Of a DNA stretch of 37,403 nt, positions 20,683-32,310 are shown in pieces; position 1 is the stretch's first letter, and every line of letters begins with the position of its first letter. Source of the stretch: Thermoplasmata archaeon (GTDB taxonomy: Archaea; Thermoplasmatota; Thermoplasmata; Thermoplasmatales; Thermoplasmataceae); NCBI GenBank assembly GCA_021818765.1, contig JAKATM010000003.1, positions 1 through 37,403 of the forward strand, given 5' to 3'. The translations under genes and the position numbers were made by a program. The notes under the pieces are model-generated. The model had not been told where the DNA came from, made no database searches, and was given only the letters and a program-made list of their open reading frames with translations.

Positions 20683-23586
20683 TTACTTACGCCGACGACG
20701 TGATGCCACTATTCCTGCAGATATAAGAGTCAAAGCGAGTAGCGTAAGCAAGATCTGAATTTCCATGTTCGAAAGAATGGAATTATAAATAGAACCAAGT
20801 ATGCCATTCGACTTGCCCCTCGAAAAAGTTATAGACTCGTTCACCTCGTGGCCAGCCACAACGATCGAACCATTAGATGGGCTTGCGTTATATCCTCCAG
20901 GGGCGGAAACATTGAACGCAAGGGTCGAATTAGCGAAGTAAAAGATGATAGACGTGTTGGTTCCAGAGAGAGTTTGGTTTCCAAGCATGACTGACCATTC
21001 AGTTCCAGCCGGAAGCCCGGTTTCACTGAATACCACGGGTGTAAGATACAATCTGAATGATATATTTATGATGGATGGTTTTCCGCCAGAAACTGTCAGA
21101 GCTTTTAACGATGAATTGAAATATGACCTGTTTGAGCTCCAGGCGTGATAAGTATATGTGCCATTCATCAGATCTACCACTATGTTCGAGGTGTTAGATG
21201 ATGCATTAAATGTGTGCCCCGATGAGTTGGTTATGTTGACATACCAGAATCCAGAAGGCAGGCCTTTCTCAATAAATGTCTCCGCATACAATACCGGGCC
21301 AAAGATGATCGTAATGTTGACTGACCTATTTCCTGATACAGTAAAGGTCCCGCTTCTATTCAAGGGTCTGTAATCCGCATTTGTAGATTCAGGGAAATAG
21401 CGGTAAGTTCCGTTTTTGAGGAAGATTTCAACAGACTTCGAAGTTGAGACCTGACCGGTTATATTCGCCGTCTCGTTATATATATAGATAGACCACGGCG
21501 TACCTGGCGGCAGACCCGACTCTTCAAATGAAGCGGAAAATCTTGAAACCATGAATTTGATATCTATAGTCTTCGATCCATTCACTGTAATATTTCCGGA
21601 AGAAGGGTATGCTAAATACGACTGGTTCTCGCTTGAAACATTGTAGGAGTAAGAACCGTTCGAAAGACAGTATGTTATATTCGAACCTGACAATGCAGAT
21701 TCTTTTTTCCCGGACAAGTTTACGAACCATTTACCAGAAGACAGGCCGGACTCATTGAAAGTCACCCTGTGTCCGAGCTGGATACTTACAAGGTTATAGG
21801 AATTTATGCTCCCCCAGCCAACGGAGAGGCTATACCCGTTTCCTGCTGCGAAATCTGCGTTAGAGCCGTTCTTGATAAAATAAAAGACAGGTTTTCCAGA
21901 TAAATTTCCAGAGACCTGTTCTTGCCCAAGCTTGTAGAGGATAGGGTTGATAAAACCCTCCGGTTTCCCTAGCGAATGATCGATAACGGCGACCTGTCCC
22001 GCAACAAGCGGGGATGCAATACTCGTTCCGTCCACTTCTGCATAATAGGCTTGCCCATTAATTGAAATGTAGATTGACATGTTTGCTCCATCGGCTGCGA
22101 TATCCGGTGTACCCCTTCCAGACGCAGCACCAGTTATTGGTTCAGCTTCTGATATGACCTTGCTGACATACGATGAGGATTGCTGCCAATCCGGCTCTGA
22201 AAAAATCTTGCTTACTCCGCCCTGGGAGCCGTTTCCTGGGTCGGGTGTGTTGAACCAGACAGCCTCTGAAGAAATACCAGTGGTTCCACTGCCATTACTG
22301 GACTGCGTTCCAGATAGGTAGGTGAAAGCACCTCCCACAGCCAGTGTTCCAAAATTATTGTACGCCATTGAAGCCGGAAAGGATGGTACAGGAGACGGTG
22401 TGTTGCCATTATCGCCAGAAGATGCTATGACAGTTATTCCCCTAGCTGCCGCCTCCATTTCGTATTGCATCCAGGTTGAGTCATTGCAATCCTGAGTCCC
22501 CCATGAATTAGATATCGCCACAACTTTTGAAAGCGCAGAATCGACTGTTGCATTATAGCTCGGAGAAAGCACGGATGCAAAAGCAACATTCAGGTCAGCA
22601 ATAGATGGTGCGGATCCGTAAACTTCTACAATCGATGCTCCAGGAGCAGTTGAACCGGCCATTTCAAGATCGAGTGTGCTCTCCACATTTGCATCAGTTG
22701 AGTCATATTGAGCAGATTGACCCGGCGGCAGTGCACCGCAGACTGGATATCCATAAACAGAAGGGACAGGCTCCTCTGAGGGCAGGTTATTTTTGAAGTA
22801 TGTCGATATGTCAAGAGGGTCAAAGGGTGCAACCGACACATTGGAACTGTTATGCCCGGCCCAGAGTATGGTTGCAATAGTGGAATTGGAAGGATAACCA
22901 TACTGCTTGAAAAGTTCATTAAGCTGGTACGCAGCCTGAAAATCTGAGCCGTAAAGTGCCTGGCTTGTTCCAGAGCCGGTGAAGAGGGGCGACAGGCTGG
23001 GTATAAACCTGTCACTAAGACCCGAGATCGACGTAATTTTTCCAAAGTTTGCATCCAGGCTGAGCGCAGCATCTGGAGCAAAAAATAACCTTCCAGGAGC
23101 CTTGAAAACCATGATTTCCGTATGGAAAACATCTTCAAACTGTGTAACTGTTGCTGTCAATGATATAGATACCCTGTCTTCAAACGTTCTTGATACATTC
23201 AGGCCCTGCGATCTGAAATAGTTCACATACGAATTGTATTCGGTATAGCTTGGCGAGAATTGTGAAACGAACTGTTTCTCGCTCAGATATCTGTGATACT
23301 CAGGAGAGAATGGATCCTGGAGGTTCATCAGAAGATGGCTCAATTGCGCGGTGTTCCTGAATTCCAGTGTTACAAGGACATTCAGCTTCTTGCTTTGATT
23401 CATTGGTCCAACTTGCATATCCGGTCCAAGATATGTGCACGAAGCATCCGCGGATATGTACTGAGAAGTATTCGGATACAAGGAGGCTCGAGGTTCGCTT
23501 GAATAAGTATTATCATGCATTAAACCAAGCCCTGAAATAAGGATCAGGAGTAACGCGATTGCCCATGCAATGTAAGCATACTTCAC
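20683..23586 (-). CDS. S53 family (sedolisin/kumamolisin-like) peptidase with C-terminal repeat domains and membrane anchor
   Basis: Pro-kumamolisin activation domain; ESTLDLEMAG (E-xxx-D), SSGDNGNTPSP, DGTSIASPLVAGQ catalytic motifs; signal peptide; C-terminal TM followed by RRRRK. Confidence 0.92.
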   Translation of the reverse strand: MKYAYIAWAIALLLILISGLGLMHDNTYSSEPRASLYPNTSQYISADASCTYLGPDMQVGPMNQSKKLNVLVTLEFRNTAQLSHLLMNLQDPFSPEYHRYLSEKQFVSQFSPSYTEYNSYVNYFRSQGLNVSRTFEDRVSISLTATVTQFEDVFHTEIMVFKAPGRLFFAPDAALSLDANFGKITSISGLSDRFIPSLSPLFTGSGTSQALYGSDFQAAYQLNELFKQYGYPSNSTIATILWAGHNSSNVSVAPFDPLDISTYFKNNLPSEEPVPSVYGYPVCGALPPGQSAQYDSTDANVESTLDLEMAGSTAPGASIVEVYGSAPSIADLNVAFASVLSPSYNATVDSALSKVVAISNSWGTQDCNDSTWMQYEMEAAARGITVIASSGDNGNTPSPVPSFPASMAYNNFGTLAVGGAFTYLSGTQSSNGSGTTGISSEAVWFNTPDPGNGSQGGVSKIFSEPDWQQSSSYVSKVISEAEPITGAASGRGTPDIAADGANMSIYISINGQAYYAEVDGTSIASPLVAGQVAVIDHSLGKPEGFINPILYKLGQEQVSGNLSGKPVFYFIKNGSNADFAAGNGYSLSVGWGSINSYNLVSIQLGHRVTFNESGLSSGKWFVNLSGKKESALSGSNITYCLSNGSYSYNVSSENQSYLAYPSSGNITVNGSKTIDIKFMVSRFSASFEESGLPPGTPWSIYIYNETANITGQVSTSKSVEIFLKNGTYRYFPESTNADYRPLNRSGTFTVSGNRSVNITIIFGPVLYAETFIEKGLPSGFWYVNITNSSGHTFNASSNTSNIVVDLMNGTYTYHAWSSNRSYFNSSLKALTVSGGKPSIINISFRLYLTPVVFSETGLPAGTEWSVMLGNQTLSGTNTSIIFYFANSTLAFNVSAPGGYNASPSNGSIVVAGHEVNESITFSRGKSNGILGSIYNSILSNMEIQILLTLLALTLISAGIVASRRRRK
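20820..21770 (-). repeat. Four tandem degenerate protein repeats (about 75-80 aa, 'F.E.GLP.G..W.V') inside the S53 peptidase gene
   Basis: HRVTFNESGLSSGKWFVNLSG / FSASFEESGLPPGTPWSIYIYNE / YAETFIEKGLPSGFWYVNITN / TPVVFSETGLPAGTEWSVMLGN, each followed by a 'NGTY/NGSY/NSTL' segment. Boundaries are approximate. Confidence 0.75.
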
Positions 23587-23806: not shown

Positions 23807-24940
23807 CTATCGTTTCTGCATCAGAAAAATGTATTCATGCTTGAAGACATAATATCCACCTGCAAGTGCGCGATATCTCCATAGCTCCTTCTGGCTCCTT
23901 TTACCTCTAGTGTCCTCAAAATTCTTGACTATAATACTTTTAAGAGTGAACCCGCATTCCATAAGCTTTTGCATGGAATAGAAACCAACCGGTATCCAGG
24001 ATCCTGATGCATACTTATCTCCTATCACCATGACCAAATGCCCTCCTTTAGCCAAAAGATGATAACACTTATCCGCTATTACAGACAGGCGTTCCAGAAA
24101 CATTTCCAGACTGGCAGAATTAGAAAGATCTCGCTCATCGGTGCTGAAATGTATAATGTCAAAATATGGTGGATGCAATAATATCAGCTTTGGCGAGGGC
24201 GCTCCAAGATCCGCAAACATCTGGTTAAAATCAGCAGCCAGGCTGTCTGCGTTAATCATTATTGTCCTTGGTCTGGATGCATCCTTAAGTGCATTCAGCA
24301 CACCAGTGACCCTCGCGGTCGTTTCTGCATTCAGGTCGATTCCAATTGAATTTCTACCAAGGTTCGAAGCTTCAAAAAGCGTCGTTCCACTGCCAGCGAA
24401 TGGATCAAATACCCAGTCATTCTTTTTAGTGAATCTAAGCATGAACTGCCTCGGTATCTGAGGGACAAAATTCCCCCAGTACCACGCTGAGTTTCCCTTG
24501 GAACTTTCTCTCCTGTCTAAATGCCAGTAGCTATCCGTAATAATATCCTTATAAATTTTCCACTGATTCAGATTCAGGTCATTTATCCCGTTGCTTTTGT
24601 GCCTGACAAGCGATCTTGAGAGCCTTTTCAGGTAGTAATCCATGCGTTCCTCGGTATATGCTGACATTGCCTGATCCACTTCATCAAGCAGATATGAAAG
24701 GGAAACCATATTTCCATCATCGAGAAGGCCGTCAGTTAAAGGCGGCAATTGAAGGGATAAGATCTCCTCCTTAAGGTTCTTCAATCCATTGAATTTAGTC
24801 TCTTTGCCGCTTAACTTAGCGATACGATCAACTAATTTCACAAGTTTATCGTCAATACGAACCTTGAAATCGCTATTCTTGTTGAGATTTCCTGAATGTT
24901 TATCGCCTTGTGGTGTTTTTTTTCCTATCCCTTTTTCCAT
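23807..24940 (-). CDS. DNA methyltransferase, N4-C/N6-A amino-methyltransferase-like
   Basis: VFDPFAGSGTTLFEASNLGRNSIGIDLNAE (motif I region) followed by LILLHPPYFDIIHFS (motif IV variant) and GGHLVMVIGDKYASG. Confidence 0.85.
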   Translation of the reverse strand: MEKGIGKKTPQGDKHSGNLNKNSDFKVRIDDKLVKLVDRIAKLSGKETKFNGLKNLKEEILSLQLPPLTDGLLDDGNMVSLSYLLDEVDQAMSAYTEERMDYYLKRLSRSLVRHKSNGINDLNLNQWKIYKDIITDSYWHLDRRESSKGNSAWYWGNFVPQIPRQFMLRFTKKNDWVFDPFAGSGTTLFEASNLGRNSIGIDLNAETTARVTGVLNALKDASRPRTIMINADSLAADFNQMFADLGAPSPKLILLHPPYFDIIHFSTDERDLSNSASLEMFLERLSVIADKCYHLLAKGGHLVMVIGDKYASGSWIPVGFYSMQKLMECGFTLKSIIVKNFEDTRGKRSQKELWRYRALAGGYYVFKHEYIFLMQKR

Positions 24941-25929: not shown

Positions 25930-25940
25930 AATATTTATAA
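25930..25940 (+). promoter_or_regulatory. TATA-like box for the vWA gene (leaderless start at 25963)
   Basis: aatatttataa centred about 27 nt upstream of the in-frame ATG at 25963. Confidence 0.45.
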
Positions 25941-25962: not shown

Positions 25963-26802
25963 ATGGTATACGAAGCAGAAATCAGCCGTACAAACCCGTC
26001 TTTGATATTATTCCTCATAGATCAGTCAAGATCAATGAGCCACAAGTTGCCGGGTGGAGAGAGATCCAAAGCACAGGAAGCCTCGGATGCAATCAACAGG
26101 CAAATAGGTGACTTTGTCCTGAGATGCACAAAGAGTGATGGAATTCGTGACTATTTCTATCTTGGCGTTATTGGCTATGGTTACGTTACTGGAAAGGCTG
26201 GCTCCATTCTCAAAGGGGACCTTATACACCCAATTTCGGAACTTGCAGGAACTCCTCTCAGGACAGAAAAGAGGAAAATGAAGGTATCAGACGGATCAGG
26301 CGGGGACATAGAAGTAGATTATGATTTTGGAGTATGGTTTGATCCGGTTGCAAACGGCGACACCCCAATGTGCAAGGCACTAACGATAGCAAGGGATACC
26401 ATAAAGGACTGGGTAGAGGAGCATCCATCTTCTTATCCACCGATCTTGATAAACATTACCGACGGACAGGCCACCGACGGGAACCCTGAGGACGTAATAA
26501 AGGAGATTCTCGAGCTTAAGACCTCAGATGGCGATACACTGATTTGGAATTGCCACTTATCTTCTAACCCATCGACGCCGGTTTCATTCCCTTCGGAGGA
26601 GTCGGACCTGCCCAACGACAAATATGCTATCTCGCTGTTCGGCGTATCTAGCGTTCTTCCTTCACAATACGTAGGATACGCAAGGGAAATGCAGATAGAT
26701 CTTAAGGACAACGCCAGGGCATACGTCTTTAATGCCCAGCTAGAGCAACTAGTCGAATTCATCGATATTGGAACAAGGGGTCCCCAGGGGCAGATGCAAT
26801 AA
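25963..26802 (+). CDS. vWA domain protein (TerY-like) with intact MIDAS
   Basis: MVYEAEISRTNPSLILFLIDQSRSMS (DxSxS), GDTPMCKAL (Thr), ITDGQATDG (Asp). The track gives 25915 as start; ATG 25963 fits TATA spacing and the family-like N-terminus better. Confidence 0.88.
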   Translation: MVYEAEISRTNPSLILFLIDQSRSMSHKLPGGERSKAQEASDAINRQIGDFVLRCTKSDGIRDYFYLGVIGYGYVTGKAGSILKGDLIHPISELAGTPLRTEKRKMKVSDGSGGDIEVDYDFGVWFDPVANGDTPMCKALTIARDTIKDWVEEHPSSYPPILINITDGQATDGNPEDVIKEILELKTSDGDTLIWNCHLSSNPSTPVSFPSEESDLPNDKYAISLFGVSSVLPSQYVGYAREMQIDLKDNARAYVFNAQLEQLVEFIDIGTRGPQGQMQ

Positions 26803-27537
26803 TTGCTTTCAGTGAGAGAATTCCACCGCCCCAAGTCTGGGTATCGGGAATCTGAGTATGAGGATGCATACTCATTGGATGCAGATGGTGGGAAATTCGC
26901 AGTAGCTGATGGTGCAACTGAGTCCAGTTTCTCAAATATATGGGCTAAGGCCCTCGTCTCAACTTTTGTCGAAAACCCTCCCCCAATGGACATGAACGAC
27001 AGGCAGTCAGTCAAGAACCTTTTGGACGAAGCGAGAAAAAAATGGTACGGGGAGATAGACTGGACCTCGCTTCCATGGTTCCAGAAGAACAAGGCAGTAC
27101 TGGGATCATACTCAACTTTTCTTGGGCTTCAGGTAGACTCTCCTCAGAGCCCAAAGCGCTACAGATGCATTACGATTGGAGATTCTTGCCTGTTCCATCT
27201 TTCCGGCCCGAAAATGGAGTCTTTTCCCTACTCTGATTACAGGGATCTTAATTACACGCCGAGGCTGATGTGGAGCGGCCATGGGTACCCCATAGGGCTG
27301 AGCAAGGACGTTGAACCGCCCGGACTGGAAGTCAAATATGGCAAGATAAAGGATGGTGACACCCTTATACTGGCAACGGATGCAATCTCCAAGTGGATGC
27401 TTCAGAACAAGGCAAACAGGCCATGGCAACAAATACTGGACAACGCCGATGACTGGGACTCATACATAGGCGGGCTCATTTCGAGCGGCTCCATGAAGAA
27501 TGACGATATCACCGTTATTTTCATCTCTGTATCTTAG
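26803..27537 (+). CDS. PP2C-type protein Ser/Thr phosphatase
   Basis: YEDAYSLDADGGKFAVADGATESSF, CITIGDSCLFHL, LILATDAISKWML, NDDITVIFI motifs. TTG (or GTG at 26812) start directly after the vWA stop. Confidence 0.88.
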   Translation: MLSVREFHRPKSGYRESEYEDAYSLDADGGKFAVADGATESSFSNIWAKALVSTFVENPPPMDMNDRQSVKNLLDEARKKWYGEIDWTSLPWFQKNKAVLGSYSTFLGLQVDSPQSPKRYRCITIGDSCLFHLSGPKMESFPYSDYRDLNYTPRLMWSGHGYPIGLSKDVEPPGLEVKYGKIKDGDTLILATDAISKWMLQNKANRPWQQILDNADDWDSYIGGLISSGSMKNDDITVIFISVS

Positions 27538-29128
27538 CTAGCTTATCAGGATCTATTCCATCCCACAGGGGGTCTTTATTCAATGCTTCAATAAGCAACT
27601 TTGTCAGCTTTCTTATCCTTCCCTTCTTCGATAGAAGCTCATTTATAAGCGGAGATTTATCGGGCATGAGGAAATCAGTTTTCCTGAACAACAGGCAGTC
27701 CTGGTCACCCCTGTTGTATCTGGTCCACAGGCTGGGATCGGATGCCACCGCCAGCAATGACAAATAAGTGACGAGAACAGAGAAATTATCCAGTCGCTCG
27801 TCATATGTGGATGTGGTTCTCTGCGGATGCTGGAAATGATCATGTCCATTCTCCGGCGCCTTCATCCCTTTCAGGCTGGGGACATACATTCCGTCGTAGT
27901 CGACCAGGGTGATCCCATCAGAAGAATTCACCATGACGTTGTCGCCGGAAATATCCCCATGAGATATTCCAAAGGATCGCAACCTTATTGCAACCGAGAG
28001 GAATCTTTTTGCTATGTCGGTTATTTTTCTAGGCGTTTCAAGGTTATTTGCAATGTAAGTGTTAAGGTTGACACCATCTATCCATTCCATCAGTAAAGCA
28101 GGGAAATAGACGGCAGGGTTCCTGAGTGTTCTCAATGTCTTCGGAAGGTAGCTGAACGAAGCAAACGTCGATCCGTCGTTGAATCTGGAAATGGCCTTTG
28201 AAATAAGGTAGTAACGCTTGCTGAGATCCGGCTTGCTGCGAGTAAAACATTTCAAGGCATGTGCGGATTGGCCATTTTCCAGCTTGAAAACCGTTCCGTA
28301 GTTCCCTGAAGAGTACACCACATTGCCTGGCATGTTGACATATGGATTTGGGACTACCTTGGAAGAAAGTATTTCCACACGATCCTTCGAAATGCTGAAC
28401 TCAAGATTCTGCATGGCCCTGGAATAGTCGCTCTGGCTTGGCCATGAAACATTCTGGGGTATAGAGTCAAGATCCGGGGGCACCTCGTCTATGATTGTTC
28501 TTGGATCTGGTGCTGCGGGTACAGTCTCTGCCTGTTTTTGCTGCTGTTGTGGAGCATCAGGCGGGGGAGCCTCATCCTTCTTTGGCTCTTTCAAGGCGTT
28601 TACCGCTCCCGTCTCCTTAGGCTGCTCCTGCTTTGCTGATGTCCTTATGAAGGTTGCTGCCACGAACAGGAAGAAAGCGAAGAATACAACATCATAGATG
28701 GGTAGCAGATACGCTATTAAAAGGGACGCAAGCACAGGCACAAGAAATAGGAATCGCCTTGGCAAGGATCTGAAGTAATATAGGAATAGTCCTGTGGATA
28801 ACGCGAGAACTGCAATGAGAAGTGCTATAGTATCGATGAAATCAAGAGGATTAACCAGGAGGGACATGGTCAGGAGTATTGCTATTGCAAGCAGGGAATA
28901 ACTGCCGGATTCCCAGTTTATCATTCTCTTCGATCGTACGACAGCTAAAATTACCAGCAAAATGAATGCAACAACAATTATATGATACGTCTCGTATGCT
29001 ATGAATATGGATGCAAGGTGGAGTCCCTTTTCAGCATATGCCCAAGAACTGTAAATGAACTGCAGCGGCACAACTGCCAGGAAGAGAATTACGAATATGA
29101 GTGCCAGGACCTTGTTTATATATTTCAT
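27521..29128 (-). CDS. Membrane-anchored Ser/Thr protein kinase (N-terminal multi-TM domain, Pro/Gln-rich linker, kinase domain)
   Basis: About 6 TM helices in the first ~165 aa; linker PPPDAPQQQQKQAETVPAAP; ALKCF (VAIK Lys), ISHGDISGDNVMV catalytic loop, LVDYDGMYVPSLKG (DFG equivalent). Confidence 0.88.
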   Translation of the reverse strand: MKYINKVLALIFVILFLAVVPLQFIYSSWAYAEKGLHLASIFIAYETYHIIVVAFILLVILAVVRSKRMINWESGSYSLLAIAILLTMSLLVNPLDFIDTIALLIAVLALSTGLFLYYFRSLPRRFLFLVPVLASLLIAYLLPIYDVVFFAFFLFVAATFIRTSAKQEQPKETGAVNALKEPKKDEAPPPDAPQQQQKQAETVPAAPDPRTIIDEVPPDLDSIPQNVSWPSQSDYSRAMQNLEFSISKDRVEILSSKVVPNPYVNMPGNVVYSSGNYGTVFKLENGQSAHALKCFTRSKPDLSKRYYLISKAISRFNDGSTFASFSYLPKTLRTLRNPAVYFPALLMEWIDGVNLNTYIANNLETPRKITDIAKRFLSVAIRLRSFGISHGDISGDNVMVNSSDGITLVDYDGMYVPSLKGMKAPENGHDHFQHPQRTTSTYDERLDNFSVLVTYLSLLAVASDPSLWTRYNRGDQDCLLFRKTDFLMPDKSPLINELLSKKGRIRKLTKLLIEALNKDPLWDGIDPDKLAKIQR

Positions 29129-30217: not shown

Positions 30218-31468
30218 ATGCAATTCAAAACTTCATTCAACATACCTGCTTCACTGTGCATCAAGTGCAGATCTGCCAAGAACCTCTGCGGTCTCTCATA
30301 TTGCCCCATACTTGTCAGCACAATGGTAACACCCAAATTTGAGAGGCAGATCAGGAATGAGGTATCTGGTTCATCTCCGCCATCCGTGTTTGTGGGCAGA
30401 TTTGGTTATCCAAAGATAAAGGTTTATCCTTCCACCCCACCGGAATTCGGTGAGACAGGAAGTTATGAAACACCATCAGAATGGATGAAAATGGACATGG
30501 AAAAATTTCTCTCAATGCGCCTTTCCATGCTGAGGGGTGGAATGGAAATATCCGTGAAGAATGCATCCACTCCGGACGGCAAGCTTCTCGACACACAACT
30601 TCTCTCGATGGCAAGCAAGCCAGTTGATATGGAAATGATTTTCAGCAAGAGCATGCTTTCATCCAAAATCGTGCTTTCGGAATACACACCACCAATGGGA
30701 CCTGCGGCCCCGCTCAAAAACATATCTTATGGAAACGTGAAAATAGAGCCATACGTCGAGCGGGCTTTCAATGACACAGATCTCCGTGCGGTCAAGGCCA
30801 TATACGACCTGTACAACAGAGGGGTAGACGTCTCCCGCCTTTCAAAAATACTTAGCACCGGTGCATTCGGTGTGAAGGAAGACCGCAGGGCGGTGCCTAC
30901 CAGATGGTCTATAACGGCGGTCGACAAGAACGTTTCAGATCTGAACCTGAAAACGCTCAAGGGCATGGAAACAGTAGACAAATTCGAGGTTTTTGTGCGA
31001 AAAACAAGCGGGAATCTGTTCATGGGTATAATGGCACCGGGCAACTGGCAGTTTGAATGGGGAGAGGCATGGTTCCCGGGCAGCACATGGAATACCTGGG
31101 GTTCCGATGCCGAGGTAGAGATCGATTATGAAGGGTACGACGGGAGGAAGGATTATCCTGGAATCGGTGGATGCTACTATGCATCAAGACTAGCCGCAAC
31201 AGAATATATGCTGAAGAGAAGGAGGATGGCAATCCCGCTCTTATGGAGGGAGATCTATCCGGGATTTAATCTTCCCGTCGGCGTCTGGTATGTGAGGGAG
31301 AACCTGAGGGAGATGTTCAACACCAAACCGGTGCAGCTAGACGACATTGAGAGCTGCATTCTCTACCTGAAGACGCAGATGAAGATACCTGTGGAAAAGT
31401 GGCTCTCAAGATCCACGATATACAGATACCTGAAAGCAGGATCGCTTGACAGGTATATTGCAGCGTGA
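30218..31468 (+). CDS. nreA: NreA-family DNA repair protein
   Basis: SLCIKCRSAKNLCGLSYCPI zinc-finger N-terminus, VFVGRFGYPKIKVYP, GPAAPLKNI, WSITAVDKNVSDL. Confidence 0.92.
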   Translation: MQFKTSFNIPASLCIKCRSAKNLCGLSYCPILVSTMVTPKFERQIRNEVSGSSPPSVFVGRFGYPKIKVYPSTPPEFGETGSYETPSEWMKMDMEKFLSMRLSMLRGGMEISVKNASTPDGKLLDTQLLSMASKPVDMEMIFSKSMLSSKIVLSEYTPPMGPAAPLKNISYGNVKIEPYVERAFNDTDLRAVKAIYDLYNRGVDVSRLSKILSTGAFGVKEDRRAVPTRWSITAVDKNVSDLNLKTLKGMETVDKFEVFVRKTSGNLFMGIMAPGNWQFEWGEAWFPGSTWNTWGSDAEVEIDYEGYDGRKDYPGIGGCYYASRLAATEYMLKRRRMAIPLLWREIYPGFNLPVGVWYVRENLREMFNTKPVQLDDIESCILYLKTQMKIPVEKWLSRSTIYRYLKAGSLDRYIAA

Positions 31469-32310
31469 ACGATATGCAGGTAGTCGAAATAAAGGCAAAG
31501 TCAGCCCTGAACAGATCTGGAATGGTGGAACTAGATTACGCCTTCAATGCATATCTGGGCTGCGCTCATGGTTGCAGGTACTGCTACGCTGCCGATATTA
31601 CACCTGGGGAATCGGCGGAGACATGGGGCGATACCGTCAGGGTCAGGGTCAACATAATCGAGCTTCTGCAGAGAGAGATAAAGAGCATGAGGAGAGGGCT
31701 TGTCGGTATTTCGACCATTACTGATCCGTATCAGCCAGTAGAGGCAAAATACAGGCTCTCCAGGCAGGCAATTTCGCTCCTGTTGGCAAACGGCTTCAGG
31801 GTATCAATTCAGACGAAGTCCCCTCTTGTGCTGAGGGATCTCGACATACTGCGGGACAGGAAGGGACTAGATGCAGGCGTCAGCCTGGCTACACCGGACA
31901 GTCAAATATCAAGACTCATAGACAGGAAATCGCCCCTTCCCGAAGCCAGGATAAGGACCATGCGTGAACTCACCAGGAACTCTATCAAGACATGGATGTT
32001 CCTGGGTCCAATCATTCCAGGTATCAATGATTCTTTCGATTCGATAGAGGCACTTATTTCCGTGGCTTCAGACCTTAAGATCAGGGTTATTTATGATCTT
32101 CTCAATCCATACAGTGGTGCGAAATCTATGCTAGGCGACAGTCTGGGTCCTGCATGGATTTCATCAATGAGCGGGCTTGACAGGCGCAGGTGGTGGGAAA
32201 GAGTTGAGTCAACTATCATCAGGATCGCAAGGGAATACAACGTGAAATGCAACAGCGAAGCCTCAGAACTCAGCGCCGAGACTGGCCTTATTTATAAGCC
32301 GCTTTTCTGA
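31465..32310 (+). CDS. SplB-like radical SAM protein
   Basis: YLGCAHGCRYCYA (CxxxCxxC), GISTITDPYQPVEAKYRLSRQAI, VSIQTKSPLVLRDLDIL. GTG start with 4-nt overlap with nreA. Confidence 0.88.
   Translation: MNDMQVVEIKAKSALNRSGMVELDYAFNAYLGCAHGCRYCYAADITPGESAETWGDTVRVRVNIIELLQREIKSMRRGLVGISTITDPYQPVEAKYRLSRQAISLLLANGFRVSIQTKSPLVLRDLDILRDRKGLDAGVSLATPDSQISRLIDRKSPLPEARIRTMRELTRNSIKTWMFLGPIIPGINDSFDSIEALISVASDLKIRVIYDLLNPYSGAKSMLGDSLGPAWISSMSGLDRRRWWERVESTIIRIAREYNVKCNSEASELSAETGLIYKPLF

What the first reader, a model, noticed from the sequence alone, without database searches (positions are those of the whole stretch)
25963..29128. TerY-P-like vWA + PP2C phosphatase + membrane-anchored kinase triad in an archaeal chromosome
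Seen directly: a vWA protein with an intact MIDAS (DQSRS / GDTP / TDG) is followed with no gap by a PP2C phosphatase (YEDAYS / VADGATESS / NDDIT). A convergent Ser/Thr kinase (HGDISGDNV, VDYDGMYVPS) overlaps the phosphatase tail. Established knowledge: bacterial TerY-P triads combine exactly these three activities (vWA, PP2C, kinase) as phospho-signalling modules tied to Ter stress or conflict systems. What differs here: the context is archaeal, no ter genes are in the window, and the kinase carries a roughly 6-TM N-terminal domain and a Pro/Gln-rich linker. Inference: a membrane-tethered phospho-switch, with the vWA protein as metal-dependent adaptor or substrate, sensing envelope or metal stress. 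This is the best candidate for an undescribed system in the window.
Basis: partly seen in the sequence, partly recalled or inferred. Interest (0 to 1): 0.75.

Follow-up and report, generated by a model that had tools for sequence, protein, structure and literature searches.

The report
Archaeal TerY-P-like phospho-signalling triad
Three neighbouring genes in an acid-loving archaeon encode a metal-site adaptor protein, a phosphatase and a membrane-anchored kinase; they are homologous to a bacterial stress and anti-phage triad, but here the set has become a fixed, single-copy part of the chromosome of almost a whole archaeal family, with a different sensor domain on the kinase in each branch.

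Summary
TerY-type vWA (25963-26802), PP2C (26803-27537) and a convergent kinase with about six TM helices (27521-29128) are intact and score clearly against the three PADLOC TerY-P models (1.5e-90, 2e-27, 1e-53). The triad is single-copy in 23 of 32 near-complete genomes of the family (11 genera, including the genomes I take to be T. acidophilum and T. volcanium). The nine lacking it belong to three genera that form one clade. In 17 of 17 lineages read, these three genes are the only conserved neighbours; PP2C and kinase meet tail to tail within -23 to +12 bp in 30 of 30 loci. This differs from bacterial TerY-P in three ways: the kinase is inverted, the C-terminal OB half is missing, and a lineage-specific N-terminal module is present (TM here; PH-like or Ig-like in sister clades). 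TerD is absent from all 61 genomes searched. TerY is more conserved than both partners in every comparison. Best reading: a TerY-P-derived, vertically inherited kinase/phosphatase switch with exchangeable input domains and a constant TerY adaptor. Signal, substrate and any anti-viral role are unknown. The "envelope or metal stress" inference is unsupported: membrane anchoring is limited to one of three clades. New variant of a known kind.

The parts
25933..25938 (+). TATA-like element (TTTATA) about 25 nt before the TerY ATG; suggests a leaderless TerY-PP2C transcript
   Evidence: read directly from sequence; inference, no transcript data
25963..26802 (+). TerY-type vWA protein, 279 aa, intact MIDAS
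   Evidence: PADLOC TerY E=1.5e-90; start supported by homologues; AF2 pLDDT 83, vWA fold by Foldseek
26803..27537 (+). PP2C phosphatase, 244 aa, directly after the TerY stop codon
   Evidence: PADLOC PP2C (TerY-P) E=2.2e-27; metal aspartates invariant 28/28
27521..29128 (-). Ser/Thr-kinase-fold protein, 535 aa, convergent with PP2C; 3' ends overlap by 17 bp
   Evidence: PADLOC STK_OB E=1.1e-53, model positions 2-273 of 562 only; fold match to protein kinases
28649..29128 (-). N-terminal membrane module, residues 1-160, about six TM helices
   Evidence: hydropathy, AF2 helices 2-160, first helix at low confidence
28478..28645 (-). Pro/Gln-rich disordered linker, residues 162-217
   Evidence: AF2 pLDDT below 50; unconserved in alignment
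27524..28444 (-). conserved WPxQxDYxxAxQ motif and kinase catalytic domain, residues 229-535
   Evidence: alignment of 11 kinases; catalytic residues

Best explanation
The three genes are an archaeal offshoot of the TerY-P (vWA, PP2C, kinase) triad that has been fixed as a single-copy chromosomal signalling module in most of this Thermoplasma-containing family. The kinase phosphorylates and the PP2C dephosphorylates a shared target. The TerY protein, with its MIDAS metal site, is the constant adaptor or substrate that presents that target. The N-terminal module of the kinase (six TM helices here, two in Thermoplasma, PH-like or Ig-like elsewhere) sets where the kinase sits and what it senses. 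Shown: homology, intact active sites, co-conservation, convergent layout, clade-specific N-termini, largely congruent trees, one loss and one transfer to Sysuiplasma. Inferred: that the three act together, that TerY is the adaptor or substrate, and that the N-terminus is the input. Unknown: the signal and the downstream effect.
For: Direct homology to all three TerY-P models. One TerY per genome in 47 of 61 family genomes and in 23 of 32 that are at least 90% complete; in that set every near-complete genome of 11 genera has it and all nine lacking it fall in g9, g18 and g19, which form one clade in the NreA tree (100/99), so one loss suffices. The three genes are conserved in 17 of 17 lineages; the next neighbour is in 5 of 17. 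Tail-to-tail PP2C/kinase ends within -23 to +12 bp in 30 of 30 archaeal loci against co-directional genes in 7 of 7 bacterial loci measured. Active sites invariant. Input-module classes each form one group on the TerY tree (A 86/92, B 99/98, C 99/97); the quick kinase and PP2C trees recover B and C, and the kinase tree recovers A weakly. TerY identity exceeds both partners in 66 of 66 genus pairs and is on a par with the DNA-repair protein NreA (median 56 against 55), as expected of a constrained hub.
Against: No expression, phosphorylation or interaction data. Conservation of neighbours does not prove a complex. The PP2C tree does not hold clade A together (g15 drifts away). Near-core presence does not exclude a broadly kept anti-viral or stress system. 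The PH-like and Ig-like assignments are sub-threshold Pfam hits and were not modelled. Clade A support is moderate.
Confidence: 0.6

Rival explanations
1. It is an anti-viral TerY-P defence system: the kinase senses infection and phosphorylates a target that stops the virus or the cell, with PP2C and TerY holding it off.
For: PADLOC files these three models as a defence system. A bacterial TerY-P is reported active against T7-like phages (PMC7699616), and the OB-fused form is described as a stand-alone antiphage system (PMC11090510). TerY-P accompanies predicted RNA-targeting CoCoNuT systems. The triad moved once to Sysuiplasma, so it can be transferred.
Against: Fixed, single-copy and mostly vertical in the family. 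No conserved nuclease, helicase or other effector next to it. The C-terminal OB half linked to nucleic-acid binding is missing. None in phage records and only two plasmid hits, both cyanobacterial.
Confidence: 0.2
2. It is an envelope- or metal-stress sensor as first proposed: the TM domain senses membrane or metal change, and TerY is a metal-dependent adaptor.
For: TM module in this clade and an intact MIDAS. TerY-P has been hypothesised to be metal sensing (Anantharaman 2012, as cited in PMC11090510). The hosts live in metal-rich acid (general knowledge).
Against: TM anchoring is not general to the module. TerD is absent. No metal gene among conserved neighbours. A MIDAS is common to most vWA adaptors and does not imply metal sensing.
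Confidence: 0.15
3. The three genes merely sit together and work in separate housekeeping roles.
For: The convergent kinase is not in the same transcript unit as TerY-PP2C (layout).
Against: Co-conservation in 17 of 17 lineages with otherwise different neighbours, and joint absence of TerY and PP2C in the g9 and g19 genomes tested.
Confidence: 0.03

Closest known systems
TerY-P triad with OB-fused kinase (Gao et al. 2020; PADLOC TerY, PP2C, STK_OB)
   Same: Three homologous proteins, adjacent; same catalytic motifs including the DYDG and GHxxFQHP segments
   Different: Archaeal kinase inverted and tail to tail; OB half absent; N-terminal TM, PH-like or Ig-like module added; near-core instead of accessory
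[quoted passage not shown]
   Same: vWA, PP2C and kinase triad
   Different: Archaeal kinase ends with the catalytic domain, so no C-terminal zinc ribbon; no CoCoNuT genes beside the archaeal triad
Actinobacterial GAP1-N2 GTPase neighbourhoods with kinase fused to zinc ribbon or TM helices, plus PP2C and vWA genes (PMC7159879)
   Same: Kinase-TM fusion with adjacent PP2C and standalone vWA genes
   Different: No such GTPase among conserved neighbours here; order and orientation there not compared
Planctomycete, Obscuribacterales and Campylobacteraceae triads (L064-L071)
   Same: TerY 38-46% identical, PP2C and kinase adjacent
   Different: Co-directional; no N-terminal extension; TM segment, TPR-like or other long regions after the kinase domain

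Membership tests
TerY-P triad | TerY-type vWA protein | tested here: met
   PADLOC TerY E=1.5e-90, positions 1-275 of 277
TerY-P triad | PP2C phosphatase of the TerY-P set | tested here: met
   E=2.2e-27, positions 10-239 of 242; metal aspartates kept
TerY-P triad | Kinase of the STK_OB set, catalytic part | tested here: met
   E=1.1e-53, model 2-273; residues kept
TerY-P triad | C-terminal OB fold or zinc ribbon on the kinase | tested here: not met
   Archaeal matches end by model position 284 of 562, whereas Calothrix covers 7-537; protein ends with the kinase domain
TerY-P triad | Co-directional TerY, PP2C, kinase genes, as in bacterial loci read | tested here: not met
   Kinase inverted in 30 of 30 archaeal loci; co-directional in 7 of 7 bacterial loci
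TerY-P triad | Link to Ter stress proteins | tested here: not met
   TerD absent from 61 genomes; other Ter families not searched
TerY-P triad | Anti-phage activity | not testable with these tools
   needs a virus assay
CoCoNuT Type II/III-A | CoCoNuT helicase and nuclease genes next to the triad | tested here: not met
   No fourth gene family conserved beyond 5 of 17 lineages; none among the window genes scanned

The most novel reading that the evidence does not exclude
A triad best known from bacterial conflict systems was recruited into a core archaeal phospho-signalling module in which the TerY adaptor is held constant while the kinase's sensor domain is exchanged between lineages (membrane, PH-like, Ig-like), and in which tail-to-tail gene ends are kept for a reason, perhaps antisense balancing of kinase against phosphatase.
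Probability: 0.4. Interest if true: 0.65.

Novelty: new variant of a known kind. Interest (0 to 1): 0.5.

Why it matters
TerY-P is treated as an accessory bacterial stress or defence cassette whose logic is unknown. A stripped-down form with no associated effectors, single-copy in what I take to be Thermoplasma acidophilum and T. volcanium, offers a clean three-protein system in which to ask what the vWA protein does with the kinase and phosphatase. It also gives a case of a conflict-type module becoming a fixed cellular pathway.

Tried and rejected
Looked for ter genes: TerD absent from 61 genomes. Looked for mobile context: no phage hit, two cyanobacterial plasmids only, one weak viral-contig hit. 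Looked for a fourth conserved gene: none beyond 5 of 17 lineages; the apparent 15-lineage cluster there is ORFs antisense to the triad genes. Considered that the T. volcanium PPM phosphatase known from the literature (recalled from memory as TVN0703) is the triad's PP2C; rejected, because that genome has a second canonical PP2C near 708 kb and the triad is at 570 kb. Considered that a vWA protein seen in the Cuniculiplasma proteome (CSP5_0782, PMC7285479) is the triad's TerY; gene order fits, but a second vWA lies 32 kb away, so left open. PDB profile searches with the PH-like and Ig-like modules gave nothing firm. Bacterial phyla could not be sampled with the genome search. The sigma-70 promoter scan was at chance level and does not cover archaeal promoters.

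Full report
Observation. The three ORFs are present and intact. The vWA protein is best started at ATG 25963: homologues share this start and a TATA-like element lies about 25 nt upstream. PP2C begins directly after its stop codon, and the kinase lies on the other strand with its 3' end overlapping PP2C by 17 bp. General Pfam models score the three only weakly, all below the Pfam cut-offs, which is why they look unassigned, but the PADLOC TerY-P models match at 1.5e-90, 2e-27 and 1e-53. Catalytic and metal-binding residues are invariant across 28 archaeal representatives.

Structure. The kinase model (pLDDT 72) has N-terminal helices to residue 160, a disordered linker at 162-217 and a protein-kinase fold. 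The TerY model (pLDDT 83, pTM 0.85) matches vWA domains, although global TM-scores are modest.

Distribution. Of 61 genomes of the window's family, 47 carry TerY, always one copy (one MAG shows it frameshifted). Among the 32 that are at least 90% complete, 23 (11 genera) have it and nine lack it; the nine belong to g9, g18 and g19. These three genera form one clade in an NreA tree (100/99). G041 and G027 have contig lengths of 1,564,906 and 1,584,804 bp, which I recognise from general knowledge as T. acidophilum and T. volcanium. Outside the family, in samples of 400 genomes of the class and 390 of the phylum, only f14 and a divergent version in f15 were found. An f14 contig matches in length a record named Candidatus Sysuiplasma superficiale (28,184 bp). 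In f14 the triad is 77% (TerY), 60% (PP2C) and 59% (kinase catalytic part) identical to the window and nests next to the window's genus, while NreA is only 34-37% identical: a horizontal transfer, most simply from this family into f14.

Layout. In 30 archaeal loci the order TerY, PP2C, inverted kinase is constant and the PP2C and kinase ends lie between -23 and +12 bp of each other. In the seven bacterial loci measured all three genes run the same way. Across 17 lineages (16 genera of the family plus f14) no other gene within about 9 kb is shared by more than five; NreA (4) and its radical-SAM neighbour (5) come closest, with a pro-kumamolisin-type protease (5).

Variable input module. Bacterial kinases begin with the catalytic domain and carry long C-terminal regions. 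Archaeal kinases end with the catalytic domain and carry an N-terminal module instead. Clade A: five to six TM segments in the window's genus, f14 and g15, two in Thermoplasma. Clade B: a roughly 85-residue domain whose members hit six different PH-like Pfam families below threshold. Clade C: a domain hitting Filamin and Ig-like families below threshold. These classes map one to one on TerY clades, although no module column is in that tree.

Rates. In 66 of 66 genus pairs TerY is more conserved than kinase and PP2C; medians are 56, 43 and 37%, with NreA at 55%. Four residues are invariant in archaeal TerY but variable or different in bacteria (S8, S35, T56, Y254; Y254 is Phe in 8 of 9 bacteria). 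These are candidate sites only.

Mechanism. From the anatomy: kinase and PP2C with intact active sites are opposed enzymes; a vWA protein with MIDAS is typically a partner-binding scaffold (general knowledge); TerY is the constrained member; the kinase N-terminus varies. The simplest reading is an input-swappable kinase/phosphatase switch acting on TerY or through it. The steps from co-conservation to complex, and from complex to phosphorylation of TerY, are inferred.

Comparison. This is the TerY-P kind by homology and gene content, but two features of the bacterial forms were tested and not met (C-terminal OB or zinc ribbon; co-directional genes), TerD is missing, and defence activity is untested. 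I therefore call it a TerY-P-like archaeal variant and do not file it as an anti-phage TerY-P system. TM-fused kinases beside PP2C and vWA genes have been noted in actinobacteria (PMC7159879), so the TM fusion alone is not new. I found no held paper describing the archaeal form; the founding paper (Anantharaman 2012) was not read here and may mention archaea.

Verdict. Real, well supported as a conserved unit, moderately novel.

Noticed in passing
L072-L075 (f14) against window 25963-29128: The triad of Candidatus Sysuiplasma and relatives (another family, outside the order) nests beside the window's genus while NreA is very distant: horizontal transfer of the whole triad with its TM module.
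   Followed up: yes
L076-L079 (f15): A divergent second archaeal form of TerY, PP2C and kinase, in different gene orders, in a high-GC lineage of the class.
   Followed up: partly
window 30218-32310; L037, L040, L041: NreA and a radical SAM gene lie close to the kinase end of the triad in four lineages (radical SAM gene also near it in g16); could be an old linkage or chance.
   Followed up: partly
G000:C47:2267-2902; G027:C1:708345-708902: A second, canonical PP2C exists in the window's genome and in the genome taken to be T. volcanium, separate from the triad.
   Followed up: yes
bacterial kinases L064-L071, L086, L087: The ATP-binding Lys of the kinase (Lys in all 28 archaea) is Arg in 5 of 9 bacterial TerY-P kinases at the aligned column.
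   Followed up: no
L066:7874-12759: An Obscuribacterales locus carries three tandem kinases of this family after PP2C.
   Followed up: no
window 23807-24940: A DNA methyltransferase gene (PADLOC MTase_II 2e-122) with no nuclease gene recognised beside it; seen next to the triad only in the window's genus.
   Followed up: no
window 20683-23586: A large pro-kumamolisin-type secreted protease; relatives lie within 7 kb of the triad in 5 of 17 lineages.
   Followed up: no
G001:C91:2092-2917 (L063): TerY and the kinase are split by frame breaks in this low-completeness MAG; likely assembly error.
   Followed up: no
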